From Silicimonas sp. (GTDB taxonomy: Bacteria; Pseudomonadota; Alphaproteobacteria; Rhodobacterales; Rhodobacteraceae): a stretch of DNA of 39,780 bases. The notes below the pieces were generated by a model. That model made no database searches. It was not told where the DNA came from and was given only the letters and a program-made list of their open reading frames with translations. Within the stretch, counting starts at the first letter, position 1. Each line of letters begins with the position of its first letter. Made by a program: the position numbers and the translations under genes. The stretch is from the NCBI GenBank assembly GCA_022819605.1, contig JAJEGW010000013.1, forward strand, positions 1 to 39,780, in the 5' to 3' direction. This document shows positions 16,591 to 35,452 of this stretch, one piece after another.

Positions 16591-16734
16591 TCACTCATCA
16601 TCGCGCTTCGGCGGCGTGTTCATTACCGCCCGCATGATGTTTTCCGGCGTGTCGGGAATCAAGTCAGGCATAGGCTTCTCGACCGGACGGCCATGCCCGC
16701 GTTTTGGTTCGTCTGCTGTTCCATCTGCAGTCAT
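16591..16734 (-). CDS. 47-residue protein coupled to the RM gene
   Basis: ATG at 16734 overlaps the stop of the RM gene (ATGA), so it is probably translated by reinitiation. The sequence is basic then Pro-rich: GRPVEKPMPDLIPDTPENIMRAVMNTPPK. I recall similar P-x-S/T-P-E-E/N-I-x-R-x-V/L-x-x-TPPK small proteins near bacterial modification genes, but no function is established. Coupling to the RM enzyme suggests an accessory or regulatory role; this is inference. Confidence 0.55.
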   Translation of the reverse strand: MTADGTADEPKRGHGRPVEKPMPDLIPDTPENIMRAVMNTPPKRDDE

Positions 16735-19860: not shown

Positions 19861-20468
19861 GGGAACGCCAAGATCCTGCATGCCGGGGCGGAGTTGCAAT
19901 TGAGGCAAGTGCTGTTGAAACAAAAAGTGTCACGGCTTTCGAGTCTTGGAGTCGCTTCCGCACCCCGTGAGATACCTTTTTCCCGCTCTGAAAATTGCTG
20001 TGTCCACTAGACCGACTGGGAGCATGTGGAGTGATGGTCAAACGCAACCATCCGGGGCCCGTGCGGCGAACGCAGCGTGTTGACAATTCAGGCGCAAACA
20101 GGGCTGGTTCGGGCATCCCCTCTCATTCAACACCGTCAAGAATCTACACGACACATTTCACATTCCAGGGATGGCCGATGGACCCAATGCAAGAACGCCA
20201 CGGGTTTCTGCAGCACGTTGGAGAGTTCCGCCCCGCCGAGCGCGCTTGTATGCCAATCCACGATACGCTACGCGGAATCATGACTCTCCCGTTGAATTGG
20301 TAATCGAAGTGGCTGACGTCAGGAAATCCAGCCGTTGTCGTGATGACGTGCTCGCAGTGTCGGAATGGAGAGTGAACCCACTACGGTATCGAATGAAATT
20401 TGCGCGAACGAGTCAGGAAGAGCAGCGTTCAGCGAAATCTCGGAGGTGCCGGTGGACGGAGGTCGAAC
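19861..20468. other. Gap between IS1595 remnant and second STAND gene
   Basis: No gene recognised. It presumably contains decayed IS1595 5' sequence (to about 20000) and the promoters of the divergent RM and STAND genes. I could not find convincing -35/-10 pairs; a TTGACA at about 20079 lacks a matching -10. Confidence 0.35.
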
Positions 20469-23400
20469 TTGATTGACTACGGGGGAGCACGAGGCTCGAA
20501 CACGGGAGACGACTTCCATGAGCTCTGGGCGACCCGGCAAGCAATTCGCCTCCTGTCAAATGAGGATGGTCTAAAGGCGATCGCCGTCGAAGGAGTGGGA
20601 TGCCGCGATGAAGCGGGCTTGCCCGGTGATACGTGGGACGGGGTGGATTGCACCCTGTACTTTGGTGGCCAGGATGCAACTGGGGCTGACCATGTCCAGA
20701 TCGAACAGCTGAAGTATTCGGCAGCCAATCCGAACAGATCGTGGACTGTCGCACGCTTGGTAGCTGGCCAGCGTGGCAAGTCGGTCATCTCCCGGTTGGC
20801 GAAGGCGTGGAAAGGGCTGACAACGCCTGACTCCAGTTCCACGCCGGTGCGCGCGAACCTGATCAGCAACCAGCCCGTCGAAAAAGACGTGGTTTCGGCG
20901 GTGAAACGAGCGGCCGCGCCATCCTTGACTGTCCCTGAACGCAAGCCAAATGCGAAAGCACCACCGGAAATCCGCTTGGCCTACGCCGCAGGGCTGAACG
21001 CCGACGACTTTCGCGAATTTGCATCCGCACTCCATATCGAAGCCGGCACGGGCTCCCGTTTCGCGCTCGAAGAACTGGTGCTCCGGGCGATTGCTGAATG
21101 GACGGATCAGGATGTCCAGGGAGTGGTTACGGGACTGAGACAATTCATCCGACGCCAAATGATGCCCGAAAGCGCGGGCGAGACGATCACCCGAGAGTCG
21201 GTCCTGCTGCAGCTTGGCGTGTCTGATGTGCTTGCGCTGTTTCCCTGTCCGCCGGAAATCGCCTCGACGATTGCGCCGGTCACTCGCGCACCAGTTCGGG
21301 AAGCTGTCGACATGCTCCGTTCCGGGGTTCAACAGCTCTGCCTGCACGGGCGCGCGGGAGTGGGCAAGACAACCGCCTTGCAGGAAATCGAGGAGGCGTT
21401 GCCTCCAAGCTCCGTCATGGTGAAGTATGACTGCTACGGCGGCGGTCGATACCTGGATCCCAGCGCGCTGCGTCACCGTTCTCAAGACGCCTATGTTCAG
21501 CTTACGAACGAGCTTGCAGCTCGGCTCAGGTTGCCGGTGCTCCTGAGCCCTCGCCGCGGCTCGGATGTCCTGCGCCTGTTCGCGAACCGGTTGAAGCACG
21601 CTGCACAGGCGCTGGCCGCCCAACATCCGGACGCTCTGATCGTTGTCGCCGTCGATGCGGCGGACAACGCAGTCACCGCCGCACAGGAAAGGAGTCCCGT
21701 TGAAGAGTCCTTCATTCACGACTTCGTGCGATTGACCGAGCTACCAGAGAACGTTCGCTTCATCGTAACCGCCCGAACTGGACGACTGGAGAAGCTGCAG
21801 TTGCCGCGTTCATATCGTGCCACGGAAATCGAGCCGTTCAGCCGACAGGAAACGAACGAACACGTTGCTCGGGCGTGGCCCGATGCACCTTCTTCTTGGA
21901 TTGACGACTTTCACCATTTCTCCAACGGCGTTCCCAGAGTGCAGGATTACGCACTCAACTTGGACGGGGAGCATCCGCGTGCGGCTCTCGACCGCCTGAA
22001 ACCTCACGGAGAGTCACTTGAAGACATCTTCAAACAACAGTTTCTCCAAGCACTCACCAAGAGCGGGTCTTCCGACGAAGTGGCGCGCCTGTGTGCCGGG
22101 CTGATCGTCTTGCCTCGACCGGTCCCCCTATCGGACCTAGCTGCGATCTTGGAAAGCACCGTTCCGCAACTCACCGACATCTGTACCGATCTCGCGCCGG
22201 GCGTTCGCTTGCAGGGCGGCGCCGCCACATTTGCCGATGAGGACTTCGAGGCTTTCGTGAGAGCCGAAGGCGGAACCGAGCTTCCGCGGACAAGAACACA
22301 CGCGGCGAATTGGCTGCTTTCGCGTGCCGCCCATGACAGTTATGCGGCGTTGCACGTGGCATCTGCGCTCGTTGCCGCCGGTCGTGGCGAGGACTTGCTG
22401 AACCTCGTGGAAGCGGAACCAGCGTCGGCCACCGTGATTGAGCCAGTCTTGCGCAAGGAAGCGGAACTGCAACGCCTGCGTCTCGCGATCAAGGTTTGTC
22501 GCGAAGCCGGAAATGTGGCGCGTGCGCTTCGCTTCGTCCTTATCGGAGCGGAAGGCATAAAGACCGAGACAGCGGTGCGCCGGCTGCTGTCAGACAATCC
22601 GGATCTCGCCGCCCGATTTGCACCAGAGACCGCCAGGCGACTGATCCTTTCCGATGCCGACCTCGTCGAGCGACATGGGCCTCTCCTGTTTCACAAGCTC
22701 GCCGTCGATGCGGATCGGGGCGATGCGGTCTCCTATCGGGAGGGTCAGCGATTTCTATCAGCTTGGCTACAAGCGAGAGAACAAGATCGTCGGAAACAGG
22801 ACGATGGCTGCCACAAGACATGGAAAATCACCGTCTCGGACATATGCAGCGCAGTGGAAGCGGCGCAGAAGCTGGAAGGTGCGGCAGAATCCCTGTGCAC
22901 ACTTCGAGCCTGGACTCCAAGGCGTACCGTCCTGGAGGTCGGACTGAGGCTCCCTTACCGACTGATAGCCGAGGGATGCCGTGAGAACGTCGAGGCGTTT
23001 GTGGTCGATGACCATCTTGAACCGCTCGCTTCCCTTTTCCTCCTGGTCCCGTTGGCACTCGCCGGCCGCCCCGTAGACATTCAACAGGTGTCTCGCGGAC
23101 TCGAACAGCTCGTGCACCGCAAGTTGAAGGTGAAGCGTTTCTTCGACTCCTTCCACTCTTCCCGAGACGCAGCGTCGTGCCATGCCCAGGTTCTTGAAAC
23201 AGCGCTGACGGCCTGCGAGATTTTGACGTTTGAGCGCGCGGCACCAAAACTCGTAGACGGGATTCTGGCTGACTTTCTCGATCCTGAACTGCGTTGGATC
23301 GAGAAGTTCCATGCGCATCAGACGCAGAAGCTGGACCTCCTCTTCCGTGCGTACGCGTTGAGAGAAGCACGGGCCGGACGCATGCCGGATGCCCAGACCG

Positions 23401-26400
23401 TATTCGAGCCACCTCCGTCACCGCCGTACGAAGGCAGCCAACTACAACAAAGCCAGGCTGCTGAAGAGCATGATCGTCCGCTGAGAGACCTCACGGGAGT
23501 CGTATTCGGCATATACGCGACCGTCGCGAACGCATTGGTCAATCGACCGGACGATGCCGTGCTGGAAGAGGAGTTGCGTCAAGCGGTCGGAACTATTGAA
23601 CGCGAGAAATGGAGGATTTCGCGCGAGTATCATTCAATTGCGTTGCGCCGCCGCGCCGCTGCAACCCTTCTCGTCCTGCTCGCCGCTGGCCATGCACCTG
23701 AAATGGTGAAGCGCTTCGCCGACAAAGCCCACGGCAAATGGCGATACGGAAACGTGGCGCCCGACGGTCGGTTCGTCGCACGCATGAGCCTGTGGCCATG
23801 CCTGCATGCCTCCCTGCTGGATGACCTTGCGACCGCCGCTGCGGAGACCCGGATGACGCGAAGCGGAGCAGACGAGAGGTCCTCCGCGCTCGTCAGCTAT
23901 GCGCGCCTCATGGCGCCATTGAGCAAGGACGACGCGAATGAGATCTTCAGCCATGCAGTCGAAGTTGCGAGCGAGCTGGACCGTGAGGCAGTGGCTCAGA
24001 TTCGATTTCTCGACGAACTGGTCGATCGCGGAAACGGTCACTTCGCGAATGCACGAAGCACGGCCCGCAGGCTCGGCAACATCGTTGCGGATGCGGCGAT
24101 CCGGCTGGAAGGACATGACGACTTCCCGTGGGAACGGGCGATGGCTGCACTGACTCGATTGGATGCGCCGCTGGCGTTGGCAAACGCGGCACGATGGGAC
24201 GACGAGGGGGTTGCTTCCCGTTTTCAGACAATTGCGCCCATGCTTGTCACGGGCCTGGGCGAGGGGACGGTCGAGCCGGAGCATGCAGCCGCGCTGTCCA
24301 TGCTCGCCGATGATCGCGGCGCAGTGATGGCGGAAGTCCTGAAGCGGTTCGGTCATGAAGAACGTCCGAACTTCGGGGCGCTTGTCGAAGAAGCCGCGTT
24401 CGAAGTTCTCATGCGACACGGCCATCGCGCGCATCAAGCGGTCGCATGTTGGATCGAGGAATTCGGGCCTGCCGGTCCATGGTCGGAATCACTGCTGCGT
24501 CAAGAGCGGTTTCTGGGCACTCTATCGCCGGAGGAGACCACGGATGAGAAACACGTTCGCGAGCCAGACACGAAGGCCGGCGATCTGCTGAGCGCTCACG
24601 TCTGGACTCAGGAGACTTTGCTCGACAGTTCATTGCTGCAGGAAGCCGTACAAGGCATGGCAGATCGCGCAGGGGCTGATCGAGCACACTATCGCGGCGG
24701 CTCCATGTTCGAGTCCGCCCGCAACGCGGTTTCCCCAGCCGACCGTGTCGCTCACATCAAGGCGCTGGCGGAGTTGGACGGAACTGCGGGCACCGTCGAT
24801 GCGTTGGAGGAGGTTTTTCAGGCCGTGGACCTATGGTTGACCAGCCCATCCGTACGGGCGTGGTGCAAGAGGGAACTTCCAGAATTGATTGTTGCCAGAT
24901 TCCCGGCATTGATCCGCTACCTGCCGTTTGCAGACGACCATCTGACATCCGCACTGAATCGGACTGGCCTTGATGACGTGGAAACTCAGAATCTGGTTCT
25001 CATGGGATTGGAGCGTCATGCAGAAGACATCCGGTCCGAACAAGTCTTTGCCCTCGCAGGAATGATCGGCCAAAAGCTTGCCCGATCCGACGCGGCGAGC
25101 TTGACCGACTGGTACGCCGAACGGCTGGAGAACCGAGTTCCAGCCGAGCATCGAGATCAGACCGCACCCGACTCCGAGCTTCCGCGAGACGTCGACGAGG
25201 CGGTGGCGCGCTTTCTCTTCGCTTACATGGGCGACTGCGATCTCCGACTGCGCTGGCGGTCGGCGCACGCCGTTCGGCGACTGGCCCGAACCGGGGTTGA
25301 CGCGACGTTGATGGCCTTGATTGAGGAGTACCATCGGCGCAAGGAACGGGTTTTTCGTGCGCGCGACTGCGAGTTCTATTGGCTGGCCGCACGGCTCTGG
25401 TTCGTAGTGGCTTGGGACCGGGTGGCTGGCGAGAGGCCGGAGGTTGCCGCCCGTGCCGGGGCCGTGCTGCGAGACATCGCGCTCGACGAGTCCTTTCCCC
25501 ACTTGCTGGTCCGATCCTTCGCCCGCGATGCGTGCGAGAAACTCACTACAACCGGGCACCTTTCCCTCACTGCCGAGGAAACCTGCAGCCTGGCCAGTGT
25601 CGCCGAATCGACCTTGCCGCGGACGCCATCAGATCCAGACGTGAAAAAGACCATAGGCAGATTCGGGCACTGGCATGGTTTCGCCTATGACGACAAAGGT
25701 CGCCGCTTCAATTTTGACACGACCGACACGCTGCCGTACTGGTATGCACCCATGCTCGAGTCATTCGCCGCCGTCGGCCGAGAGCGTTTCCTTTCCGAGG
25801 CCGAGCGCTGGATCATCGACGAGTGGGGCCATAGCGTCGACACTCGTGGCTTCGAAACGGAACGTCGGCAAGGCCGCTTCAACGACAGGGACTGGGCCTT
25901 GAGCATGCACAATCATGGCTCGACGCCGACATTGGAGCCACTGAGGACTCACCTCGAATGGCATGCCATGTGGTGCGCGTCGGGGGAGCTTCTGAAGACC
26001 GAACCTTTGGCTCCTTTCGATGAACACAATTCTTGGAACGACTTAAGTGCCCGAATTCATCGAGAGAAACTCATGGAACCACCGCTATGGTCAGCGGACT
26101 TGCTGGTTGCGACACCGCTGTCGGCCCGAAACTGGCAAGCCGACCGCCGTCCTCTGGAAGATTGGGTCGTGGAAGTTCGGGAAGCGGATCATCGTGCGGA
26201 GATCTTGCCACGTGATACACCGAGTTACGTGGTCGTTGACGGTTCATCCGAACGCCGTGCTATTGATCGCCTTGAACGGGTTCGGGTCTCCAGTGCACTC
26301 GTCGAACCCGAGACGGGACGCTCTCTTGTTCGGGCACTGCAGACGATGCGCGATTCATGGGATTACAAGCTGCCTGACGAAGACGAAGAACGAGCCGAGA

Positions 26401-26912
26401 TCGATTGTGCACCGTTCCGTTTCCTCGGATGGTTACAAAGGTCGTCTCGAGACGGTAGTTTCGACAGTAAGGATCCTTTCCGAGGACACGCCTTCAAGAT
26501 CAGCAGTCGGCCAGGGCAGCGCGTTACGGTCGACTGCAATTTGATCAGAGATGGGGCTGGTCGGCCCCATTGGTCCAACGGTGAGGTGGCGCCCCCCATG
26601 TTCGTTTATGAGGCGTGGGGAGTGGACGCCGAAGGCGAGGAACGTTACCGGGGTGATTTCGCAGTCGCAGGAAGTCGTCTAGCTGCCCATAAGGAACAGC
26701 TGCTGAACTTTCTTCAAGAACAAGCGCTGGATTTGATCATTGAAGTGGAGGTGGATCGACGTGAGCGAGAAAGTCGACGATACGTTGGCGCGGAAGAGGA
26801 CGCTAGCCGGGAAGGTCGATTCGCACGACTCTACCTGCTCTGCGCAAACGGAGATCTTGAAGTCGCCGAAGGACGTATTGGCACTTGGACAGGTGATCGT
26901 CCGGCAGCTTGA
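20469..26912 (+). CDS. Giant Avs-like STAND NTPase with N-terminal nuclease-like domain
   Basis: 2,147 residues. TTG at 20469 is chosen as start because GGAGG lies 6 nt upstream. The N-terminus has a restriction-nuclease-like pattern: GDDFHELWATRQAIRLL, Glu41, DGVD (Asp60) and VQIEQLK (Gln77, Glu79, Lys82). The NTPase follows: Walker A GRAGVGKTT (about 294-302), then DCYGGGRYLDPSALRHRSQ with a downstream QLTNELA helix (about 320-352), Walker B LIVVAVDAADNA (about 388-399) and RFIVTARTGRL (about 429-439). The remaining about 1,600 residues are helical repeats, the expected sensor. Avs-type proteins recognise phage structural proteins inside the cell and then degrade DNA. The downstream gene overlaps its end by 152 nt. 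The exact Avs type is not assigned. Confidence 0.78.
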   Translation: MIDYGGARGSNTGDDFHELWATRQAIRLLSNEDGLKAIAVEGVGCRDEAGLPGDTWDGVDCTLYFGGQDATGADHVQIEQLKYSAANPNRSWTVARLVAGQRGKSVISRLAKAWKGLTTPDSSSTPVRANLISNQPVEKDVVSAVKRAAAPSLTVPERKPNAKAPPEIRLAYAAGLNADDFREFASALHIEAGTGSRFALEELVLRAIAEWTDQDVQGVVTGLRQFIRRQMMPESAGETITRESVLLQLGVSDVLALFPCPPEIASTIAPVTRAPVREAVDMLRSGVQQLCLHGRAGVGKTTALQEIEEALPPSSVMVKYDCYGGGRYLDPSALRHRSQDAYVQLTNELAARLRLPVLLSPRRGSDVLRLFANRLKHAAQALAAQHPDALIVVAVDAADNAVTAAQERSPVEESFIHDFVRLTELPENVRFIVTARTGRLEKLQLPRSYRATEIEPFSRQETNEHVARAWPDAPSSWIDDFHHFSNGVPRVQDYALNLDGEHPRAALDRLKPHGESLEDIFKQQFLQALTKSGSSDEVARLCAGLIVLPRPVPLSDLAAILESTVPQLTDICTDLAPGVRLQGGAATFADEDFEAFVRAEGGTELPRTRTHAANWLLSRAAHDSYAALHVASALVAAGRGEDLLNLVEAEPASATVIEPVLRKEAELQRLRLAIKVCREAGNVARALRFVLIGAEGIKTETAVRRLLSDNPDLAARFAPETARRLILSDADLVERHGPLLFHKLAVDADRGDAVSYREGQRFLSAWLQAREQDRRKQDDGCHKTWKITVSDICSAVEAAQKLEGAAESLCTLRAWTPRRTVLEVGLRLPYRLIAEGCRENVEAFVVDDHLEPLASLFLLVPLALAGRPVDIQQVSRGLEQLVHRKLKVKRFFDSFHSSRDAASCHAQVLETALTACEILTFERAAPKLVDGILADFLDPELRWIEKFHAHQTQKLDLLFRAYALREARAGRMPDAQTVFEPPPSPPYEGSQLQQSQAAEEHDRPLRDLTGVVFGIYATVANALVNRPDDAVLEEELRQAVGTIEREKWRISREYHSIALRRRAAATLLVLLAAGHAPEMVKRFADKAHGKWRYGNVAPDGRFVARMSLWPCLHASLLDDLATAAAETRMTRSGADERSSALVSYARLMAPLSKDDANEIFSHAVEVASELDREAVAQIRFLDELVDRGNGHFANARSTARRLGNIVADAAIRLEGHDDFPWERAMAALTRLDAPLALANAARWDDEGVASRFQTIAPMLVTGLGEGTVEPEHAAALSMLADDRGAVMAEVLKRFGHEERPNFGALVEEAAFEVLMRHGHRAHQAVACWIEEFGPAGPWSESLLRQERFLGTLSPEETTDEKHVREPDTKAGDLLSAHVWTQETLLDSSLLQEAVQGMADRAGADRAHYRGGSMFESARNAVSPADRVAHIKALAELDGTAGTVDALEEVFQAVDLWLTSPSVRAWCKRELPELIVARFPALIRYLPFADDHLTSALNRTGLDDVETQNLVLMGLERHAEDIRSEQVFALAGMIGQKLARSDAASLTDWYAERLENRVPAEHRDQTAPDSELPRDVDEAVARFLFAYMGDCDLRLRWRSAHAVRRLARTGVDATLMALIEEYHRRKERVFRARDCEFYWLAARLWFVVAWDRVAGERPEVAARAGAVLRDIALDESFPHLLVRSFARDACEKLTTTGHLSLTAEETCSLASVAESTLPRTPSDPDVKKTIGRFGHWHGFAYDDKGRRFNFDTTDTLPYWYAPMLESFAAVGRERFLSEAERWIIDEWGHSVDTRGFETERRQGRFNDRDWALSMHNHGSTPTLEPLRTHLEWHAMWCASGELLKTEPLAPFDEHNSWNDLSARIHREKLMEPPLWSADLLVATPLSARNWQADRRPLEDWVVEVREADHRAEILPRDTPSYVVVDGSSERRAIDRLERVRVSSALVEPETGRSLVRALQTMRDSWDYKLPDEDEERAEIDCAPFRFLGWLQRSSRDGSFDSKDPFRGHAFKISSRPGQRVTVDCNLIRDGAGRPHWSNGEVAPPMFVYEAWGVDAEGEERYRGDFAVAGSRLAAHKEQLLNFLQEQALDLIIEVEVDRRERESRRYVGAEEDASREGRFARLYLLCANGDLEVAEGRIGTWTGDRPAA

Positions 26913-27735
26913 GTTGCAAGATCGCGGAACCGTGCTGGAGCGCTGGCTCGCCCACCTTCTGGCCGAGGTCATCGGAGAGGCCGATCAAGCTGCAGGTCCG
27001 GCAAAGGAGGCGTGCGAGGCGCGGGCGGTCGACCTCATACTGAAGCTCTGGGTTCACCGACGGGCGCTTCCGGAACAGGTCGATCCGCTCGGCGGATACC
27101 GAAAGGCCATCGAGGTCCTGGGCCATCTGATGCCTGACGCGAATCCTTGGGCACGCTGCCATCGATCCGACACCTACGATGGTCAGTTGCGCGAAATGTT
27201 CGAGCTTATGGTCAAGATCGTGCTGGCAGGCGTCTCGCTCACCCAAGTTTCTCGCGTACGCCCGGTCACCGATGAAGAGTTGAAGGCACTTGAAGATGAG
27301 GAACGACATTTGCACTCAACGCTGGAGAAATGGATGCGGGTCGTTGCTCGTTCGTCGTCCAGGCCCGAAATCGAGATCGCATTCATCGATCCCGGAACGG
27401 TCGAGAGTGCTGACACAGACCGGAAATCGGGGTCAGTTGGCGGTTTCAGCGAGCAGGAACACACGTCGGATGGGCACGAGGGGCAAGACGAAGTCAGCCT
27501 TCACGCCGAAATTGTCTCGAACCTTGAACTTATGCAGGCTGAGTTGACGGACTTGTTGACTCGCTGGCGAAAATCTTCACCCGGCAAGACTGAGGGCGAG
27601 GACGAGAACCTGGATGGCAGCGTGGAAGGCAGTGCTGCAACAAAAGATGGTTGCCTGGACACATCCAGAGAAGGAGAAGTGAGTCGAGAGAAAGGCGAAG
27701 CAGATACAGCCGGAGAGATACAGCCGGAGAGCTGA
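26761..27735 (+). CDS. Partner protein of the Avs-like STAND gene
   Basis: 324 residues from GTG at 26761, which has GGAGG 10 nt upstream inside the STAND gene; the two genes overlap by 152 nt in different frames. Residues about 40-170 are mostly helical (VIVRQLELQDRG, LERWLAHLLAEVI, AVDLILKLWVHR, MFELMVKIVLAG). The last 100 residues are acidic and low-complexity. No catalytic motif is seen. Some Avs systems carry a small second gene, and the tight overlap implies a joint role, perhaps as regulator or chaperone; this is inference. A 14 bp tandem duplication lies at the 3' end. Confidence 0.65.
   Translation: MSEKVDDTLARKRTLAGKVDSHDSTCSAQTEILKSPKDVLALGQVIVRQLELQDRGTVLERWLAHLLAEVIGEADQAAGPAKEACEARAVDLILKLWVHRRALPEQVDPLGGYRKAIEVLGHLMPDANPWARCHRSDTYDGQLREMFELMVKIVLAGVSLTQVSRVRPVTDEELKALEDEERHLHSTLEKWMRVVARSSSRPEIEIAFIDPGTVESADTDRKSGSVGGFSEQEHTSDGHEGQDEVSLHAEIVSNLELMQAELTDLLTRWRKSSPGKTEGEDENLDGSVEGSAATKDGCLDTSREGEVSREKGEADTAGEIQPES
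27702..27729 (+). repeat. 14 bp tandem duplication at the 3' end of the partner gene
   Basis: AGATACAGCCGGAG occurs twice without a gap (27702-27715, 27716-27729), four codons before the stop. As 14 is not a multiple of three, losing one copy would change the C-terminus. Confidence 0.8.
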
Positions 27736-28065
27736 GCCGCCCCTGTGGAAGTCTGAAGTGCTCGCAAATAACACTGACGATGATCTCGGGCATCCAGCCG
27801 TGTTGCAGACATGGCACCAGGCCACACTCACAAAGGGAAGCGCCGACTCTCGATTCGTCCTGCAAATAACGACTTCCTGAGCAAGAAGCCTCCCATCGCG
27901 GAGCGCAGCTCGGATCATCGTTGAATTCCGAGTGCAGATTGCGGCGAGTCAGCGGGCATGCTCGGCACCTGGTGCCTGTTGACGCACAGGACAGGCCCAT
28001 GTCGATGGATCGCCGGAAACGACAGCAGGGCCAAGGCACTTGCGTATCCTGCGCCGCCGATAACC
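27736..28065. other. Intergenic stretch without a recognised gene
   Basis: About 330 bp between the STAND partner gene and the operator of the XRE-ASCH module. No frame resembles a known protein. No clear terminator is seen. Confidence 0.35.
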
Positions 28066-28119
28066 ATATCTGGACATCCTCCCCAGATATTACTTGACGG
28101 AAATCTGGGCGTCTATAAT
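28066..28119 (+). promoter_or_regulatory. Promoter and three-half-site operator of the XRE-ASCH/PIN-GNAT operon
   Basis: A perfect TATAAT lies at 28114-28119 and TTGACG at 28094-28099 (14 bp spacer, so the true -35 may differ). Three copies of an ATCTGG half-site surround it: ATATCTGG 28066-28073, its reverse complement CCAGATAT 28083-28090, and ATCTGGG 28103-28109. The first two form a perfect inverted repeat with a 9 nt centre. This is the layout expected for autorepression by the XRE protein encoded 29 bp downstream. Confidence 0.6.
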
Positions 28120-28147
28120 GTACACATCAAAAAAGAGCGGGGGCAGA

Positions 28148-28942
28148 ATGAGCGCACTGCAAGGAAAAGTCATCGAAATCAGGCCATCGCCGGACGCCGA
28201 ATCCGCGAAGAAAATCGGACAGTCCCTAAAGGAGGTTCGCAGACTGTCTGGGTTGACTCAGGCTGCAATGGCAAAGCGTCTTGATGTCAGCCAGGCGTCC
28301 GTATCAAGAATCGAAGCCGGCCGGAGGAACCTGCAGGTCTCCGCCCTCCAGAAATTCGTGGAAGTCTTGGGCGGCACCATCAGGATCGCCGCAGAATTCC
28401 CCGCTGACGGCGCCTTGTCCCTGCATGTGTGCGACGCCTTCGAGGTCGGGATTGAACATGAAGACCAGCTGGTGCTCCCGATATTCGACGAAGATCCCTT
28501 TCGTCCGCAACGCGATGTCGTGCTGAGCATCCGACCGAAGTACACAAGCCGCATCATGGCCGGTGAAAAGACAGTCGAACTCCGTCGTCGATTCCCGGCG
28601 TCTGCGCCCGAGGGCACCACTGCGTACATTTACTCGACCTCTCCGGATCGCGCCATGGTTGGCCTCGCCGAAATTGCCCGAGTGCAAAAGCTTGAACTGG
28701 AGGAAATCTGGCAGCGTTACGCAGATACCGCCTTTGTCGAGCGAACAGAATTCGACAGCTATTTTGAAGGACTGGATCAGGGTCTTGCCCTTGAGATTGA
28801 AAATGCACGTCCCTTTGCAACGCCGTTGCCTCTTTCCCATCTCAGAGAACGTTTCGGATTCGAGCCACCCCAGTCGTTTCTTTACGCAAAGCGGGATTTG
28901 AGAAGGGCGCTCAAGGATGACTACGCAACTGTATCTCATTGA
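28148..28942 (+). CDS. XRE-family HTH regulator with C-terminal ASCH (PUA-like) domain
   Basis: 264 residues. Residues about 22-76 form an XRE helix-turn-helix (SLKEVRRLSGLTQAAMAKRLDVSQASVSRIEAGRRNL). Residues about 123-250 form an ASCH domain (VVLSIRPKYTSRIMAGEKTVELRRRFP, then GTTAYIYSTSP and a GLAEI strand), a fold that binds RNA or modified nucleotides. Such HTH-ASCH/PUA fusions are known but poorly characterised. ATG at 28148 has GGGGG 5 nt upstream. ATG at 28118 lies inside the -10 box and is unlikely. Its gene overlaps the next by 26 nt, in the style of antitoxin-toxin pairs, and it probably represses its own promoter through the ATCTGG half-sites. Confidence 0.8.
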   Translation: MSALQGKVIEIRPSPDAESAKKIGQSLKEVRRLSGLTQAAMAKRLDVSQASVSRIEAGRRNLQVSALQKFVEVLGGTIRIAAEFPADGALSLHVCDAFEVGIEHEDQLVLPIFDEDPFRPQRDVVLSIRPKYTSRIMAGEKTVELRRRFPASAPEGTTAYIYSTSPDRAMVGLAEIARVQKLELEEIWQRYADTAFVERTEFDSYFEGLDQGLALEIENARPFATPLPLSHLRERFGFEPPQSFLYAKRDLRRALKDDYATVSH

Positions 28943-30455
28943 TACGAACGTAATAATCGGCCTCGAAGACAATCACACCGTCAAGCCGGCGTATGCCAAT
29001 TTCTCAAAGTTGGCCGCCAAGCACAAAGTCGATGTATTCGTCCACGAAGCCGCAAGCGATGACATTGGTCGGGACAAGGACACAGGCCGGCGCACGATCT
29101 CGCTCAGCAAGCTCGAGAAATTCCAGAAACTCGAGAAAGTCAAAGGCCTGACCGAGGGAGATCTTGAGCAAATCTTCGGCCGAATTCGGAGGCCCAACGA
29201 TCTTGTGGATGTCACGCTGCTTCATGCGCTTAGCATTGGTGCAGCCGACTTCCTGGTCACCGAAGATCAAGGGTTGCACGAGCGTGCCCAAAGGCACTCC
29301 GCCGAACTGGCTCGACGGGTCCTGTTCGTCGCGGATGCAGCGCAACTCCTCGCGACCACATACGAGCCGCGAGAAGTTCCGATCCGCCATGTGGCAGAGG
29401 TCTCCGCACACACAATTCGGAAAGACGACACGTTCTTCGACAGTCTTCGCGAAGGCTATCCAAGATTTGACAAGTGGTGGGATGAGAAGTGCATCGGTGA
29501 GCGTCGCCCTTGCTGGGCCGTTCATGACGGTGACGAACTCGCTGGATTGATCGTCCGCAAGGACGAGACCGGCACCAACACCGATGCAACGCGAAAGTGC
29601 GACAAGATCCTGAAAGTCTGCACATTCAAGGTCAGCCCCGAAAAGCGCGGGATCAAGCTCGGAGAACTGCTCCTCAAGAAGGTGCTCTGGTTCGCGCAGA
29701 AAAACGACTACGACTTGGCCTACATCACTGCCTACCCGGATCAGGTCGCCCTGATTGCGCTGCTTGAATTCTATGGATTTCAGCAAACGGCGACGAAAGG
29801 CGACGGCGAACTGATCCTTGAGCGGACCTTCTCGAACCATCGCCTTGAACGGGATGGCCACGTCCCGGTTTATGAGACCGATCGCAAGAACTATCCACGC
29901 TTTGTCGCCGACACAAATGTCCGAGGCTTCGTCATTCCGATCATTGAGGGCTATCACGATGCGCTCTACCCAGACCTCCGCGATGCGCGACAGCCCGATT
30001 TCTTTCGTGATGTTGGCAAGGAAAGCGGGCCTAAGCGCCCCGGCAATACCATCCGCAAGGTCTATCTTTGCCGCGCGCCTTCCAACCTCGGTGATCCAGG
30101 CTCTGTGCTTTTCTTCTACAAGAGCAAGTCTGATGAAACGCCTTCTCAGGCCCTTACCGCTGTTGGAATTCTCGAGGAACTTGCTCTGGCAAGCTCAACA
30201 AAGGACCTGATGCTGCTCACGGGCGGGCGGTCCGTCTACAGTGAAACCGAACTGGCGCACTACAAGGCATCTCAGGCCTCGCCTGTGAAAGTGATCAACT
30301 TCCTGCTGGTCGATTACATAGAGCCGCCCATCTCACTCGATGAACTTCAGGCCAAGGGCATCTTCTCCGGTCATCCACCACAGTCCATTTTGGAACTCAA
30401 GGGCAAAAGACTGCGAGATGCGCTTGACCGCTGCAACTTTGGGTTCGAGATTTGA
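28917..30455 (+). CDS. PIN-GNAT-PUA-like three-domain protein (putative toxin/effector)
   Basis: 512 residues. Domain 1 (about 1-145) is a PIN ribonuclease fold with acidic residues Asp9 (YLIDTN), Glu44 (VHEAA), Asp98 (LVDVTLLHA) and Asp117 (VTEDQGL). Domain 2 (about 165-305) is a GNAT acetyltransferase with the CoA loop KRGIKLGELLLKKV (about 243-256) and ITAYPDQVALIALLEFYGF. Domain 3 (about 330-512) looks ASCH/PUA-like (RKVYLCRAP, VLFFYKSKS, ALTAVGILEEL). ATG at 28917 overlaps the XRE-ASCH gene by 26 nt, with AAGG 9 nt upstream. PIN domains usually cut RNA and GNAT toxins can acetylate aminoacyl-tRNA. The order suggests RNA recognition plus two enzymatic activities, controlled by the partner. 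Possibly a toxin or defence effector; function inferred. Confidence 0.78.
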   Translation: MTTQLYLIDTNVIIGLEDNHTVKPAYANFSKLAAKHKVDVFVHEAASDDIGRDKDTGRRTISLSKLEKFQKLEKVKGLTEGDLEQIFGRIRRPNDLVDVTLLHALSIGAADFLVTEDQGLHERAQRHSAELARRVLFVADAAQLLATTYEPREVPIRHVAEVSAHTIRKDDTFFDSLREGYPRFDKWWDEKCIGERRPCWAVHDGDELAGLIVRKDETGTNTDATRKCDKILKVCTFKVSPEKRGIKLGELLLKKVLWFAQKNDYDLAYITAYPDQVALIALLEFYGFQQTATKGDGELILERTFSNHRLERDGHVPVYETDRKNYPRFVADTNVRGFVIPIIEGYHDALYPDLRDARQPDFFRDVGKESGPKRPGNTIRKVYLCRAPSNLGDPGSVLFFYKSKSDETPSQALTAVGILEELALASSTKDLMLLTGGRSVYSETELAHYKASQASPVKVINFLLVDYIEPPISLDELQAKGIFSGHPPQSILELKGKRLRDALDRCNFGFEI

Positions 30456-31251: not shown

Positions 31252-32127
31252 TCATTCTGCCAAAAGGTACAATCCCAGGCACAGGCAGGCAACGGAGAAG
31301 AAGATTTGCCAGTCCGGCAATCGGCTTGACATGGCAGAAGAAATGATGACCGCGAATACCGGTGACAAGGACAGGCAGCTGGCCACTGCAGTGGCATCGC
31401 CGTGCTGCAACGCCATGTTTGCGAGATAAAGGCCAAGACCTGAACTCAGAAACGCGCTCAATGCAATGTCCCTGGCCACGCCGTCGCGTCGGTCCAGTCG
31501 CAGGGAGAACGTGTCTCGTGAAGCCGCGATCAGGATTGCAATGGCGATTGCAGCCGACAAGGCGCGAACGCCCGAAACCGCGAAGATCGACTGAACATCC
31601 GCAACCGCCGCCTTTGTGAGAACTATGCCCACGGACTGGCCCACGGCCGCGCCAAGCCCCGCAGCATAGCCGACGCCGCTGCCTGATGACGTTTTGTCCG
31701 CAGCATCCCTGGTGCGGACAACGGCCGCAACGATCACCGCAACGGTGGTCAAAGCGGCACCGAGGAACAGGGAGAGCGTCGCGCTCCGATCCCCCAGGCT
31801 GACGGTGAGCATCGCCGTCATGGGAATGTTGAGGGAAAATGCGATCAGCCCTTTCAGAACGCCCATGTCCTTGATCGCCTTGTAGAGCAGCGTCTCTCCG
31901 AACGCGATGCCGACAATTCCGGAAGCCACGAGCAAGATCAGCTCGGACTTGCCGACGTCCGCGAATCCTGAACTGAGGAGGGCGACGACCATGAACACGC
32001 CGCCGACCAGCGAGAACCTGATAAGCGAGAACTGCGTGACGGGAATTGCCCTGAGCGGGCGCGCCGAGACGAAGGATGCCGAGGCCCAGCTCATGGACGC
32101 CAACACGCCCAGGACGATTCCCAGCAT
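31252..32127 (-). CDS. EamA/DMT family transporter (putative product exporter)
   Basis: 291 residues with about ten hydrophobic segments arranged as two EamA halves: an N-terminal LGIVLGVLASMSWASASFV start, AFSLNIPMTAMLTVSLG, then a second half with ALSAFLSSGLGLYLANMALQHG and SLSPVFAVIIS. DMT/EamA proteins commonly export amino acids and small metabolites across the inner membrane. ATG at 32127 has GAGGAG just upstream and lies 15 bp after the stop of the Ddl-like ligase gene. It is the last gene of the leftward PanD-ATP-grasp operon, so it probably exports that product; this is inference. Confidence 0.8.
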   Translation of the reverse strand: MLGIVLGVLASMSWASASFVSARPLRAIPVTQFSLIRFSLVGGVFMVVALLSSGFADVGKSELILLVASGIVGIAFGETLLYKAIKDMGVLKGLIAFSLNIPMTAMLTVSLGDRSATLSLFLGAALTTVAVIVAAVVRTRDAADKTSSGSGVGYAAGLGAAVGQSVGIVLTKAAVADVQSIFAVSGVRALSAAIAIAILIAASRDTFSLRLDRRDGVARDIALSAFLSSGLGLYLANMALQHGDATAVASCLSLSPVFAVIISSAMSSRLPDWQIFFSVACLCLGLYLLAE

Positions 32128-32142
32128 GTCTCCTCGCCCCTT

Positions 32143-33258
32143 TCAGGCGGCCAGCTCGCCGTGTCCCTTGCAGCTGGCTACACGAACGGATTGAACGTGC
32201 TGACGAAACTCCTTGCGGCGCTCGACGTTTCTCCCTTCGTTTTCCATTGATGCGGAAAGGAGATCGGTGAGGGACAGTCCGCCTCTCGCGAGCATCTTGG
32301 GGTAGATGCTTGCTTCGGTCAATCCACGCCCCGTGTTGACCTCCAGGAAATGAATGTCGCCGTTCTCTCCCAGCATGTAGTCAAAGCGACAGCACGTGTG
32401 ATAGTCAAAGCGACTGACAAGCTGGCCTGTTATGCGACGGATGCGTTCCGCAACCTCGTCCGTCAAGGCATCGAAGTTGACTTCGTAGCCGACGTCCTTG
32501 ATCCATTTCTCTTCGTAACCGAAGAAGTTGGAAGCCGTTTCCAGCACGGCCACCGGCAACAACTTTGGCCGGCCGTGGCGATGCAGCACCCCGCATGTCA
32601 CGTCACGCCCCGCCACGCGACGCTGAACAAGGAAATGGTCGCAGAATGGCCATGCGCGACCCGCGAAACTCTCGACGTCCTCCTCCGTCAGGCTGCTGAC
32701 GAGTTCGGTCAGGAACGACCCGCCTCCCGTGTTGGGCTTCAGCACGCACTCCCGACCAATGAATGGCCTGAGATCGCTTTCGGCCGGGTCGGGGTCCCGC
32801 GACCGGCACATCAACGTCTGGACAGGCGTCAGGTCATTGGCGACAGAAACGGCAATCTGGTGCTGAAGGAACTTGTCGTTCCCGACCGCATTCGTGAGGA
32901 TGTGGCCGCAACTCGACTTGAGGTCGAAGAACTCCGAGATCGCCTGGAAACGGCCATCTTCCCCGTCCTGTCCCTGCAGCAGCGAAAAGAGGAAGACATT
33001 GTCCATTTTCAGAAGCTTCGGAAGGTCATCTGAAGGCACTTTGACTCCGGAGGAAACGACGTCTTCGTGCTTGGGAAACTTTCCGGGCCGACAGGCCAGG
33101 ACAGTGACCTCGCCCGAAATGTCGATGTAGATGACCTTGGCCAGTTGGAATCTTGCCAGGATCTCCTCACGCCGGACACGGAAGTGCCGGTACATGCTGA
33201 CGGAGCAATCGTGTTCCGTGGATCGTCCGCCATAAATCAGGGAAATCTGCGTTTTCAT
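32143..33258 (-). CDS. D-Ala-D-Ala ligase-like ATP-grasp enzyme
   Basis: 371 residues. The N-terminus ISLIYGGRSTEHDCSVSM matches the GGxSxEHxVS motif of D-Ala-D-Ala ligases. The ATP-grasp core includes CVLKPNTGGGSF (lysine and glycine-rich loop, about 190) and ends in FLEVNTGRGLTEASIYPKML (about 319-338), matching FLEVNTxPGMTxxSLxP with Arg for the usual Pro. These enzymes join two amino acids through an acyl-phosphate. As it is in an operon with a decarboxylase and another ligase, a biosynthetic peptide-ligase role is more likely than cell-wall synthesis. ATG at 33258 has AGG upstream and lies 12 bp after the preceding stop. Confidence 0.8.
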   Translation of the reverse strand: MKTQISLIYGGRSTEHDCSVSMYRHFRVRREEILARFQLAKVIYIDISGEVTVLACRPGKFPKHEDVVSSGVKVPSDDLPKLLKMDNVFLFSLLQGQDGEDGRFQAISEFFDLKSSCGHILTNAVGNDKFLQHQIAVSVANDLTPVQTLMCRSRDPDPAESDLRPFIGRECVLKPNTGGGSFLTELVSSLTEEDVESFAGRAWPFCDHFLVQRRVAGRDVTCGVLHRHGRPKLLPVAVLETASNFFGYEEKWIKDVGYEVNFDALTDEVAERIRRITGQLVSRFDYHTCCRFDYMLGENGDIHFLEVNTGRGLTEASIYPKMLARGGLSLTDLLSASMENEGRNVERRKEFRQHVQSVRVASCKGHGELAA

Positions 33259-33270
33259 TGTGCAACCTGC

Positions 33271-34509
33271 CTATCCTTCTTGAGTTTCAATGGAGATGTG
33301 TTCTACAGCAACCCTGGCTGCGGCGATGGCATCCTCTGCATTGTTGGCGGAGGCGATCGCGAATGCGAGGCGGTCGTGATTGGATCCCTTGACCGCGTAG
33401 CGCTCGCCAGTTCTCGCTCGCGTTCCGACTTCCACGACGCAATCGGCCCTGCCGGCATCTTCCAGGCCGGTGACCTCGGAAACCGGTTCGGAGGTTCTGG
33501 AAAGAACGAATCGAACCACCGCCCATTTGTCATTCGAAACACGGAGCTCATCGCCGACGCCAGGCAGCCGGCAGATCCTTTTCACGTAGGCGTGGGCCAG
33601 CCGAACGCCCCTTGAATGCTCGACGCACTGGGTCACGTTTCCGCCCCCAAGCCTCGGATTGATCTCGATCAGCCTGGCATGCGTGCCGTTCCAGCGATAC
33701 TGGACATGGGCCGGCCCCCAGATCAGGCCGGTCCGGCGAACCGCCTCTTCTGCGCTGGCAGCCAGCATGGAGTCCAGTTCCGGATCGCAGGCTGCGGGGT
33801 GAAGATGCGAAACCTCGATGAACCCCATCGAGTCATCGATCTCGACCTGGGTCACGCCCAGCGCCACCCCGTCAAAGACCTCGACGGAAAATTCCTGGCC
33901 CGACACGTACTCCTCCACCAGGACCTGCTGCGTCCCATCACCTTCGGGAACAAGCCCGACTTCCCAAAGGTGCTCGACGTGCCGCTTCGTGTCTGCCCAG
34001 CTGCGGCAGCGTCTGACTCCCAATCCGGAATTGAGGCTTGTCGGCTTGACAATCGTTTCGCCCGTGAACAGGCCCCGGCAGTCATCAAGGTCCCTTGCGC
34101 TGGAGACGGAACGGAATGCCGGCGACTGGTCTGGCAACAGTCTCCGCGTGGCGCTCTTGTCCTTGCAGTTCCTGATCGAAGCAGGGCACGGGTGTTCCAG
34201 GCCCAGAGTCTTGGCTGCCGCCAGCACCGGCAACAGCATGTTGTCGCTTGTCGTTCCGACACCGACGATCTCAAGGTTCCGTTCATTCGAGACGCAACTC
34301 AAGGCGTCCAGAATGTCGCCATCGTCAGCCGTCGTGACTTCAACGACTTCGCAGGGACAGCGGTCCAGAAAGGGGTAGATTTCGGGCTCTTTTGTCACGA
34401 AGACCGGAACCAGTCCAAGCTCCGTCGCTGCCCGTACGCAGTGCTCCCCCGCCCCGATCATGGTCCCCTCGACGAATGCGACCGCCTTCCGAGGGCCGGG
34501 GATGTTCAT
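33271..34509 (-). CDS. ATP-grasp amino acid ligase-like enzyme
   Basis: 412 residues of the ATP-grasp superfamily, closest in pattern to L-amino-acid ligases and BtrJ-like enzymes. The N-terminal Rossmann-like part reads KAVAFVEGTMIGAGEHCVRAATELGL. The core has KDKSATRRLL, ETIVKPTSLNSGLGV (ATP-binding lysine and glycine loop, about 155-169), VLVEEYVSGQEFSVEVF and LIEINPRLGGGNV (metal ligands Glu and Asn, about 287-299). A C-terminal about 100-residue domain follows. It forms amide bonds with ATP; its substrates are unknown. ATG at 34509 overlaps the PanD-like stop (ATGA), implying translational coupling. Confidence 0.82.
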   Translation of the reverse strand: MNIPGPRKAVAFVEGTMIGAGEHCVRAATELGLVPVFVTKEPEIYPFLDRCPCEVVEVTTADDGDILDALSCVSNERNLEIVGVGTTSDNMLLPVLAAAKTLGLEHPCPASIRNCKDKSATRRLLPDQSPAFRSVSSARDLDDCRGLFTGETIVKPTSLNSGLGVRRCRSWADTKRHVEHLWEVGLVPEGDGTQQVLVEEYVSGQEFSVEVFDGVALGVTQVEIDDSMGFIEVSHLHPAACDPELDSMLAASAEEAVRRTGLIWGPAHVQYRWNGTHARLIEINPRLGGGNVTQCVEHSRGVRLAHAYVKRICRLPGVGDELRVSNDKWAVVRFVLSRTSEPVSEVTGLEDAGRADCVVEVGTRARTGERYAVKGSNHDRLAFAIASANNAEDAIAAARVAVEHISIETQEG

Positions 34510-34973
34510 TCGGCCGGCTCCGGAAGCAGAAATTCCTCATGGAGCGGGACCGGGAGCGGCCTGCCGTCTTCCAGGATCGAGAATTCCAGTTGATTCCCAG
34601 GAGTGCGGGCGACGTCATATGTCAGTCGGTCCACGACACTGTTGTCCGGGGCGAAGGTGAGAATCCTGGGCGACAAGCCGGTCACGTCCTTGGCGGGAAG
34701 GTAGTCTGAACTGCAGATGATCACTTGATCTCCAGCCTGACACGTGCGGGCGGCCGCCCCGTTCAGAATGCAGCACTTCGAACCGCGTTCTCCGAAAATC
34801 ACGTAGGTGGAGATTCGTGCACCGGAGTTCTTGTTCCAGATGTCGACATACTCCATGGGAAGAATTCCGACTTCCTCGCAATGCTCCGGATCGAGCGTGA
34901 TCGAGCCATGATAGTTCAGGTTTGCCTCGGTCACGTAGATGCCGTGGAACTTGGCGGCAACAAACTGCTTCAT
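34506..34973 (-). CDS. panD: PanD-like aspartate 1-decarboxylase
   Basis: 155 residues. It matches the PanD pro-enzyme throughout: MKQFVAAKFHGIYVTEANLNY with the catalytic lysine (Lys8), the self-cleavage site Gly23-Ser24 in YHGSITLD that generates the pyruvoyl group, DIWNKNSGARISTYVIFGERGS (Arg-x-Ser-Thr-Tyr site) and LNGAAA. PanD turns aspartate into beta-alanine. It is about 30 residues longer than ordinary PanD, with an extra C-terminal tail (about 125-155). ATG at 34973 has AAGGA about 9 nt upstream. Context, with two ATP-grasp ligases and a transporter and without panB or panC, argues for a specialised metabolite instead of pantothenate. The substrate could differ from aspartate. Confidence 0.82.
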   Translation of the reverse strand: MKQFVAAKFHGIYVTEANLNYHGSITLDPEHCEEVGILPMEYVDIWNKNSGARISTYVIFGERGSKCCILNGAAARTCQAGDQVIICSSDYLPAKDVTGLSPRILTFAPDNSVVDRLTYDVARTPGNQLEFSILEDGRPLPVPLHEEFLLPEPAE

Positions 34974-35014
34974 GAGTGTGGTTCCTTTTTCTGCTGTTGT
35001 TCGGGTGTGTGGCA

Positions 35015-35326
35015 TCACGCAAGCCAGGAATCGAAGAAGTCGCTGCGCGTCCTGCGTCGGGCCAACTGCGGAAATTCCGGATCGTCGACCGTATGCAACG
35101 TTGCCTTGTCGACAATGGCGGCGGCAAAGCCGTCCTGGCTGTTCGGGGCGACAGGCAGGTTCTGCGATGGTTTGGAGCCCTCCAGTCCGAGGACGACTCG
35201 GGTGCCGCTCCTGCCGCGGGCCAGTCCGACACTTGCACAACGAAGCGGCGGCAAGGGTCCAGGGACCCTCGCCACCGCCTCGAGCGCCTGCCTGCCGGCT
35301 TTCATTTCCGATTGACTTCTTGCCAT
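35015..35326 (-). CDS. Small protein upstream of the panD-like gene
   Basis: About 103 residues from ATG at 35326. Alternatives are ATG 35305 and ATG 35449; no start has a clear ribosome-binding site. Third codon positions are strongly G/C, as in real genes of this genome, and the stop is 41 bp before the panD-like start on the same strand. The sequence is basic and Pro-rich in the middle, with a charged, aromatic C-terminus (RRTRSDFFDSWLA). No known domain. It may be a regulator, a carrier or a substrate peptide of the ATP-grasp enzymes, or not a gene at all. Confidence 0.4.
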   Translation of the reverse strand: MARSQSEMKAGRQALEAVARVPGPLPPLRCASVGLARGRSGTRVVLGLEGSKPSQNLPVAPNSQDGFAAAIVDKATLHTVDDPEFPQLARRRTRSDFFDSWLA

Positions 35327-35452
35327 CCACACGGGCCGAGCATCCGCTGCCGACACATCGACCGTGCCGCTGGATTCGCTCGCTCCGTTCGCGAGCATAG
35401 CCCGCAGAGTGCCGCATGCCGTCCCGGAAACTCTCGTCCCGTTGCCCATCAC

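What the first reader, a model, noticed from the sequence alone, without database searches (positions are those of the whole stretch)
31252..35326. Compact operon of PanD-like decarboxylase, two distinct ATP-grasp ligases and a DMT exporter
Seen: four leftward genes with ATGA, 12 bp and 15 bp junctions, in the order decarboxylase, ATP-grasp ligase, Ddl-like ligase, exporter. Known: PanD makes beta-alanine from aspartate, ATP-grasp ligases form peptide bonds, and EamA proteins export small metabolites. Inference: a short pathway makes and exports a beta-alanine-containing di- or tripeptide, or one built on another decarboxylated amino acid. No pantothenate genes are near, and the PanD-like protein has an extra about 30-residue tail. 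I know of no characterised operon with exactly this content.
Basis: partly seen in the sequence, partly recalled or inferred. Interest (0 to 1): 0.8.

Follow-up and report, generated by a model that had tools for sequence, protein, structure and literature searches.

The report
Beta-alanine mini-peptide operon with exporter
Four neighbouring genes in this bacterium encode an enzyme predicted to make beta-alanine, two enzymes predicted to join amino acids and a predicted exporter, so together they likely make and release a tiny peptide, and most of the related gene sets examined in nitrogen-fixing plant symbionts have upstream DNA that matches the switch of nitrogen-fixation genes.

Summary
In detail: four leftward genes with ATGA, 12-bp and 15-bp junctions encode PanD, an L-amino-acid-ligase-type ATP-grasp, a Ddl-like ATP-grasp and an EamA transporter.

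A pantothenate role is unlikely. The genome has one PanD, no PanC, and PanB-like proteins below the panB cut-off; 0 of 36 other genomes searched from its genus and family have PanD. The Ddl-like protein keeps the catalytic residues but lacks three acceptor-side residues that the genome's housekeeping Ddl has.

In rhizobia, PanD lies directly upstream of a Ddl-like relative in 6 of 9 distinct loci opened; a lysine-2,3-aminomutase-like enzyme is near in 2 more. Six of 9 have a NifA-type enhancer plus sigma-54 promoter, and a distant relative in Paraburkholderia phymatum is NifA-dependent in nodules (PMC8305402, passages). The window operon has no such promoter.

Best reading: synthesis and export of a small beta-alanine peptide; structure unknown, biochemistry untested. 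The 'extra tail' is ordinary for this PanD type. New variant of ATP-grasp peptide pathways.

The parts
34506..34973 (-). PanD, aspartate 1-decarboxylase (155 aa), first gene; predicted source of beta-alanine
   Evidence: Pfam PF02261 130.6 bits; TIGR00223 equivalog 111.5 vs cut-off 106; alignment to E. coli PanD 1ppy with the Gly-Ser cleavage pair in register; only PanD in the genome
33271..34509 (-). ATP-grasp ligase of L-amino-acid-ligase type (412 aa), second gene, ATGA overlap with PanD
   Evidence: ATP-grasp_4 and LAL_C2 over cut-off; best solved relative by sequence profile is ligase BL00235, 3vot, 176.7 bits; AlphaFold model pLDDT 92.8, best fold match 3vot TM 0.82-0.85
32143..33258 (-). 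Ddl-like ATP-grasp ligase (371 aa), third gene, 12 bp after the second
   Evidence: Dala_Dala_lig_C 82.5 bits but below the cut-off of each of the 25 NCBIfam models shown of 29 matched; catalytic residues kept, acceptor-side H, S, Y replaced by Q95, G180, W252; model pLDDT 86.2, the 50 listed fold matches are Ddl/Van-type ligases
31252..32127 (-). EamA/DMT-type transporter (291 aa), fourth gene, 15 bp after the third; predicted exporter
   Evidence: PF00892 86.5 bits, two EamA stretches; no NCBIfam match at E 0.01, so substrate and direction unknown

Best explanation
These four tightly packed same-strand genes, likely one operon, are predicted to make a two- or three-residue peptide containing beta-alanine and to export it. 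SHOWN by sequence: gene order and junctions; a PanD family member with the self-cleavage Gly-Ser pair; two different ATP-grasp ligases, the Ddl-like one with its catalytic residues kept and its acceptor side altered; a two-repeat EamA transporter; no PanC and no protein over the panB equivalog cut-off among those found in the genome; recurrence of PanD beside relatives of the Ddl-like protein in rhizobia. INFERRED: PanD decarboxylates aspartate to beta-alanine; the Ddl-like enzyme activates one amino acid as an acyl phosphate and joins it to beta-alanine, my best guess being D-alanine with beta-alanine, because one rhizobial version carries an intact alanine racemase in line (another a remnant) and DmpA-type aminopeptidase genes lie near; the second ligase adds a further L-amino acid or makes a companion dipeptide; the EamA protein carries the product out.
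For: Gene packing. PanD over the equivalog cut-off. No visible pantothenate use: PanC in 0 of 8 genomes of the genus, own included; three own PanB-like proteins score 77-94 bits against a panB cut-off of 207.55. PanD in 0 of 36 other genomes searched of genus and family. Ddl-like clade: Q95, G180, W252 in 5 of 5 members of the window clade, against H, S, Y in the genome's own housekeeping Ddl. Recurrence: PanD directly upstream, same strand, in 6 of 9 distinct rhizobial clade-1 loci opened; KamA-type aminomutase, from a family that makes beta-amino acids, near in 2 of 9. L024 continues Ddl-like, Alr, S58 peptidase; that peptidase's best solved match is 1b65 at 410 bits, which I recall as DmpA. 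Ligase and Ddl-like relatives share contig lengths of 9,040 and 90,635 bp. Ligases of the same broad family also lie near the Ddl-like gene in 4 of 15 loci of nodule bacteria: L022, L029, L065, L090.
Against: No enzyme activity was tested. Three PanB-like proteins do pass the broad Pfam cut-off (97-129 against 28.7 bits), and a fourth short piece at a contig edge was not judged. The window PanD groups with two metagenome PanDs (99/95), not with the Ddl-linked rhizobial PanDs; a single origin of the link is rejected only weakly, p-AU 0.058 with the Bradyrhizobium row and 0.016 without it. PanDs 68-70% identical occur in Palleronia caenipelagi and Maritimibacter sp.; the window's family is not named to me, so PanD may exist in kin outside my sample. 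On the two metagenome contigs with both ligases, no PanD shows among the best 120 PanD hits listed of 7,988; more distant PanDs would not be listed. The window's Ddl-like copy has R311 where the 27 other aligned rows have P, and a near-identical copy, P0001, also has P, so this copy could be impaired. Rhizobial copies vary: position 252 is T, K, E or R, and L027, L065 and L089 differ at S317 or G312. L088 has neither PanD nor KamA; an intact racemase is in 1 of 9 clade-1 loci and an S58 gene of the L024 type in 2 of 9. The assembly has 220 contigs, 97% complete, 6% contaminated.
Confidence: 0.6

Rival explanations
1. PanD serves coenzyme A: it supplies beta-alanine for pantothenate, and the ligases and transporter are unrelated passengers.
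For: PanD passes the panD equivalog model. Close rhizobial PanDs end bio operons in the four loci L064, L075, L076, L077, a vitamin context.
Against: No PanC found in the genome or in 7 of 7 genus mates; PanB-like proteins far below the panB cut-off; ATGA coupling to a ligase; no PanD in the 36 other genomes searched of genus and family.
Confidence: 0.12
2. One of the ATP-grasp ligases stands in for PanC and joins beta-alanine to pantoate or another hydroxy acid, giving pantothenate or an analogue.
For: PanC is absent while PanD is present; three PanB-like proteins pass the broad Pfam cut-off; ATP-grasp enzymes form such amide bonds (general knowledge).
Against: No protein over the panB equivalog cut-off. 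The Ddl-like enzyme keeps E15, which binds the substrate amino group in Ddl (residue role recalled), so an amino acid donor fits better. An exporter suits a released product. The Ddl-like protein is found in 1 of 390 genomes of the order, so it is no general route.
Confidence: 0.06
3. The ligases make a dipeptide without beta-alanine, such as a D-amino-acid dipeptide for cell wall or antibiosis, and PanD was captured by chance or serves something else.
For: Closest relatives of both ligases share contigs with no close PanD listed; clade-2 Ddl-like genes sit with an Asp/Glu racemase and a D-aminopeptidase in L090.
Against: PanD-Ddl adjacency recurs in 6 of 9 distinct rhizobial clade-1 loci, with a PanD that groups apart from the window's; PanD is the first gene and overlaps the ligase here.
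Confidence: 0.2

Closest known systems
PanD of the pantothenate pathway (TIGR00223; E. coli 1ppy)
   Same: Family, self-cleavage Gly-Ser pair, length and tail typical of rhizobial-type PanD
   Different: No PanC found and no protein over the panB cut-off in the genome; first gene of a ligase-exporter cluster
D-Ala-D-Ala ligases and Van-type D-Ala-D-Ser/Lac ligases
   Same: Fold and catalytic residues
   Different: Below all 25 displayed NCBIfam cut-offs (best 125.5 vs 245.65 bits); acceptor-side H, S, Y replaced by Q, G, W
L-amino acid ligases BL00235, BacD, RizA
   Same: LAL_C2 domain; best sequence-profile and fold match is BL00235, 3vot
   Different: About 20% identity to BL00235; closest named relative is an uncharacterised protein of Salinarimonas ramus, 41%; paired with a Ddl-like ligase
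Rhizopine systems (mos/moc of Sinorhizobium meliloti), for the rhizobial relatives
   Same: Predicted nodule-type promoters on the synthesis genes; peptidase, regulator and ABC transporter genes nearby in L087
   Different: Rhizopine is an inositol derivative (passage of PMC3538637), not a peptide; product and catabolism here are unproven; the window operon has no such promoter

Membership tests
PanD (aspartate 1-decarboxylase) | Score over the curated equivalog model | tested here: met
   111.5 vs 106 bits
PanD (aspartate 1-decarboxylase) | Gly-Ser self-processing site in register | tested here: met
   Alignment to 1ppy: NYHGS over HYEGS; processing itself not assayed
Pantothenate pathway | PanC to use beta-alanine, PanB to make ketopantoate | tested here: not met
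   PanC 0 of 8 in the genus; three PanB-like proteins 77-94 vs 207.55 bits on the panB model, though over the broad Pfam cut-off; a fourth edge piece not judged
D-Ala-D-Ala ligase | Curated Ddl family cut-off | tested here: not met
   TIGR01205 125.5 vs 245.65 bits; the other 24 displayed Ddl/Van models also below cut-off, 4 more not displayed
D-Ala-D-Ala ligase | Acceptor-side His, Ser, Tyr (H63, S150, Y216 of E. coli DdlB; numbering recalled) | tested here: not met
   Q95, G180, W252 in 5 of 5 window-clade proteins; H, S, Y in the genome's own Ddl
D-Ala-D-Ala ligase | ATP-grasp catalytic residues and fold | tested here: met
   E15, K129, K174, R291, D293, E306, N308 aligned with the housekeeping Ddl; the 50 listed fold matches are Ddl/Van-type enzymes; but R311 departs from the NxxPG motif
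L-amino acid ligase | LAL_C2 domain and BL00235-like fold | tested here: met
   41.7 vs 29.4 bits; 3vot ranks first by profile and by fold
L-amino acid ligase | ATP-dependent alpha-dipeptide synthesis | not testable with these tools
   needs an enzyme assay
EamA/DMT exporter | Two EamA repeats | tested here: met
   two stretches, 86.5 vs 28.2 bits
EamA/DMT exporter | Outward transport of the product | not testable with these tools
   no subfamily match
Rhizopine-like nodule system (rhizobial relatives only) | NifA/sigma-54 control of the synthesis genes | tested here: inconclusive
   Promoter plus enhancer upstream in 6 of 9 distinct clade-1 loci and 1 of 6 clade-2 loci; expression evidence seen only for that clade-2 relative (PMC8305402)
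Rhizopine-like nodule system (rhizobial relatives only) | Catabolic genes in the same strain | tested here: inconclusive
   S58 peptidase, MurR/RpiR regulator and ABC transporter genes (annotated in short pieces, perhaps decayed) in L087; S58 downstream of Alr in L024

The most novel reading that the evidence does not exclude
PanD/Ddl-like pairs are an unrecognised class of nodule metabolite system: rhizobia switch on, through NifA and sigma-54, the synthesis of a beta-amino-acid dipeptide (D-alanine with beta-alanine, or a KamA-made beta-amino acid) and carry a matching importer and DmpA-type beta-aminopeptidase to feed on it, a peptide counterpart of rhizopine. The window holds a free-living offshoot that added a second ligase and an exporter.
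Probability: 0.3. Interest if true: 0.8.

Novelty: new variant of a known kind. Interest (0 to 1): 0.6.

Why it matters
If right, it adds a small, self-contained, NRPS-free route to beta-amino-acid peptides, with PanD as the dedicated precursor enzyme and a Ddl-like ligase whose acceptor site has been re-tuned. It would give function to genes now annotated as 'D-alanine--D-alanine ligase' and 'pantothenate biosynthesis' on rhizobial plasmids, where both labels may mislead. It also makes a question directly testable: whether root nodules contain a beta-alanine dipeptide made by bacteroids and eaten by their free-living kin.

Tried and rejected
Pantothenate role: rejected as main reading after the PanC, PanB and PanD searches. 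Tail as a special feature: rejected. ORF 35015-35452 as a fifth gene: no plasmid or PADLOC match, left out. Scans of viral contigs found no relative of either ligase. The promoter/terminator scan of the region was no better than shuffles. GC and GC3 of the operon match its surroundings, so composition does not show recent transfer. Contamination of the contig: a window gene (3319-4116) has 81-82% relatives in two genus mates, so the contig fits the genus. Searches of the window's order (1 of 390, the own genome, at E 1e-40), of its class (23 of 385 at E 1e-30, only the own genome below 1e-60) and of the Mesorhizobium order (1 of 397 at 1e-60, the centre genome itself) gave no further window-type loci. 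The own genome holds one S58 peptidase elsewhere; no link to the operon is shown. KamA of L065 may not act on lysine: it matches 2a5h with D293 kept and D330 replaced by C; the role of these residues is recalled. L027 has a gene annotated 'P1 family peptidase' that my tblastn did not match to the L024 peptidase, so it is not counted.

Papers. Ten full-text searches listed no paper that, by title and start of abstract, describes a PanD plus Ddl-like plus L-amino-acid-ligase operon or a PanD-Ddl nodule system. Several lists were capped (15 of 763, 20 of 56, 15 of 23, 10 of 168, 12 of 24), and the library lacks most subscription papers. Passages only were seen in PMC3732241, PMC8627217, PMC6331556 (nothing relevant), PMC9235088, PMC8416774, PMC8305402, PMC3538637 and PMC12316311; no whole paper was read.
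Full report
WHAT IS THERE. Four genes run leftward from 34973 to 31252: PanD, an ATP-grasp ligase, a Ddl-like ATP-grasp ligase and an EamA transporter. PanD and the first ligase overlap by ATGA; the next gaps are 12 and 15 bp. Co-transcription is inferred from this packing. PanD scores 111.5 against the panD equivalog cut-off of 106 and aligns with E. coli PanD through the Gly-Ser cleavage site. The first ligase has ATP-grasp_4 and LAL_C2 domains; the ligase BL00235 (3vot) is its best solved relative by sequence profile and by fold. The third protein is Ddl-like in fold but misses the cut-off of each of the 25 Ddl or Van models shown of 29 matched.

NOT A PANTOTHENATE GENE SET. PanD occurs once in the genome. 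None of the other 36 genomes of its genus (7) and family (29) that were searched has PanD; the call found it in 6 of 61 genomes, the own one and five of other families. PanC, the enzyme that uses beta-alanine, was not found in any of the 8 genomes of the genus, the own one included; 7 of 15 other family genomes have it. Four PanB matches exist in the genome: three pass the broad Pfam cut-off (97-129 against 28.7 bits) but score only 77-94 on the panB equivalog model, whose cut-off is 207.55; the fourth is a short piece at a contig edge that I did not judge. So beta-alanine made here has no visible route to pantothenate. Caveats: the assembly has 220 contigs, 97% complete and 6% contaminated, though the contig fits the genus by one gene with 81-82% relatives in two mates; and PanDs 68-70% identical to this one occur in Palleronia caenipelagi and Maritimibacter, whose kinship to the unnamed host I could not place.

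THE DDL-LIKE LIGASE. In an alignment of 28 proteins, the window protein keeps the residues aligned with E15, the two ATP-binding lysines, R255, D257, E270 and N272 of E. coli DdlB (numbering recalled). Three positions that the genome's own housekeeping Ddl keeps as H, S and Y are Q95, G180 and W252 in all 5 proteins of the window clade. Among 9 rhizobial clade-1 proteins Q95 is kept in 8 and G180 in 9, while position 252 is T (5), K (2), E (1) or R (1); three of the nine also differ at S317 (L027, L065) or G312 (L089), which may mean decay. I recall from DdlB and Van studies that the S and Y positions tune the second substrate; on that basis the acceptor is predicted not to be D-alanine. One point against the window's copy: R311 stands where the 27 other rows have proline, and a near-identical copy, P0001, has proline too.

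THE PARTNERSHIP RECURS. Relatives of the Ddl-like protein at 35-40% identity lie in Sinorhizobium, Rhizobium, Mesorhizobium and Bradyrhizobium, several on large plasmids of nodule isolates, one of them named psymA. I opened 9 distinct clade-1 loci; L023 and L087 are near copies and count once, L028 and L089 are one place, and one further near-identical record (H4) was not opened. PanD is directly upstream on the same strand in 6 of 9: L087, L024, L027, L089, L029, L030. A KamA-type aminomutase is upstream in L065 and upstream but divergent in L022. L088 has neither. KamA enzymes also make beta-amino acids (general knowledge); the L065 protein's best solved match is lysine 2,3-aminomutase 2a5h, 422 bits. 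In L024 the order is PanD, Ddl-like, alanine racemase, peptidase S58. The best solved match of that peptidase is 1b65 at 410 bits, followed by a beta-peptidyl aminopeptidase; I recall 1b65 as DmpA, and PMC9235088 says that DmpA and BapA degrade carnosine, beta-alanyl-histidine (passages). L087 has an S58 gene of the same type, a MurR/RpiR regulator and ABC transporter genes upstream, the latter annotated in short pieces, and only a remnant of the racemase. So an intact racemase was seen in 1 of 9 and this S58 type in 2 of 9; the D-alanine part of my reading rests on that. A PanD and a Ddl-like protein of an uncultured Bradyrhizobium come from contigs of the same length, 16,824 bp, and are probably linked too. 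The two ligases of the window have relatives on contigs of equal length (9,040 and 90,635 bp), so that pair is probably linked as well. Ligases of the same broad family (25-28% to the window's where compared) lie near the Ddl-like gene in L022, L029, L065 and L090, 4 of 15 distinct loci of nodule bacteria: 9 of clade 1 and 6 of the more distant clade 2.

HISTORY. The window PanD groups with two metagenome PanDs (support 99/95), while the rhizobial Ddl-linked PanDs lie elsewhere in a partly unresolved tree. Forcing all of them together (9 rows) is not quite rejected (p-AU 0.058), and is rejected without the Bradyrhizobium row (0.016). PanD may thus have joined Ddl-like genes twice; this is suggestive, not shown. 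The profile of the Ddl-like family finds only the own genome at E 1e-40 among 390 genomes of the order, so the gene is a rare, probably acquired trait. Its composition does not stand out.

NODULE LINK OF THE RELATIVES. Upstream of PanD, KamA or the Ddl-like gene, 6 of 9 distinct clade-1 loci (L027, L065, L089, L029, L030, L088) have a -24/-12 sigma-54 site with a TGT-N10-ACA enhancer 91-105 bp before it. Four of the six promoter cores are perfect, L029 has one mismatch and L089 two. L024 has a perfect core without an exact enhancer; L087 has only a two-mismatch core with a mis-spaced enhancer; L022 has none. In clade 2 only L025, 1 of 6, has such a pair. Shuffled sequence gives 0.0002 (up to 1 mismatch) or 0.002 (up to 2) such pairs per 700 bp. 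Three more pairs occur in L065 and one in L088 away from these genes, so these regions as such may be rich in them. In Paraburkholderia phymatum the clade-2 relative Bphy_7633 (L025, 28.6% to the window's) falls by log2 8.45, and its neighbour matE by 8.21, in nifA-mutant nodules, about as much as nif genes (PMC8305402 Table 1, passages). L025 has no PanD. The window operon has no such site within 700 bp, so the nodule link belongs to the relatives only.

HOW IT LIKELY WORKS. PanD turns aspartate into beta-alanine; the Ddl-like enzyme joins it to another amino acid, by the rhizobial neighbours perhaps D-alanine; the second ligase extends or diversifies the product; the EamA protein exports it. 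Each of these steps is inferred. The order of residues, the third residue and the purpose are unknown. Confidence 0.6 for a beta-alanine peptide pathway with export; well below that for any exact structure.

NOVELTY. ATP-grasp dipeptide pathways are known; the combination with PanD and a Ddl-like partner was not seen in the listings of ten full-text searches of the held library (several lists capped). I rate it a new variant of a known kind. The nodule reading of the relatives is the most novel idea the evidence allows.

Noticed in passing
window 11280-30455: Defence island next to the operon: a protein matching Avs3a over its length (20400-26912, 700.6 bits), a MmeI-type type IIG restriction-methylation enzyme (16731-19517), the PDC-M11B/PDC-M11A pair (28094-30455) and a PDC-M54A/nSTAND-like protein (11280-15824, partial matches).
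   Followed up: partly
window 32143-33258: R311 in the NxxPG motif of the Ddl-like protein, proline in the 27 other aligned rows and in the near-identical P0001; could be natural, impairing or a sequence error.
   Followed up: partly
L029:12416-17239: Beside PanD-Ddl in Sinorhizobium meliloti 4H41: an ATP-grasp/lyase fusion, a PLP enzyme and a GHMP kinase. In P. phymatum, genes annotated GHMP kinase and PLP-dependent enzyme (Bphy_7478, Bphy_7479) are strongly NifA-dependent too (PMC8305402 Table 1).
   Followed up: no
L090:6034-12662: Clade-2 Ddl-like gene with an Asp/Glu racemase next door and a D-aminopeptidase about 3 kb downstream in a genome of the Mesorhizobium set, which looks like a second make-and-break dipeptide system.
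   Followed up: no
L091:7144-9478: A PanD lies downstream of a clade-2 Ddl-like gene on the same strand, a further PanD-Ddl neighbourhood outside clade 1.
   Followed up: no
L064, L075, L076, L077: PanD is the last gene of biotin operons on Mesorhizobium and Phyllobacterium plasmids, so rhizobia can hold several PanD copies; Mesorhizobium sp. STM 4661 has three.
   Followed up: partly
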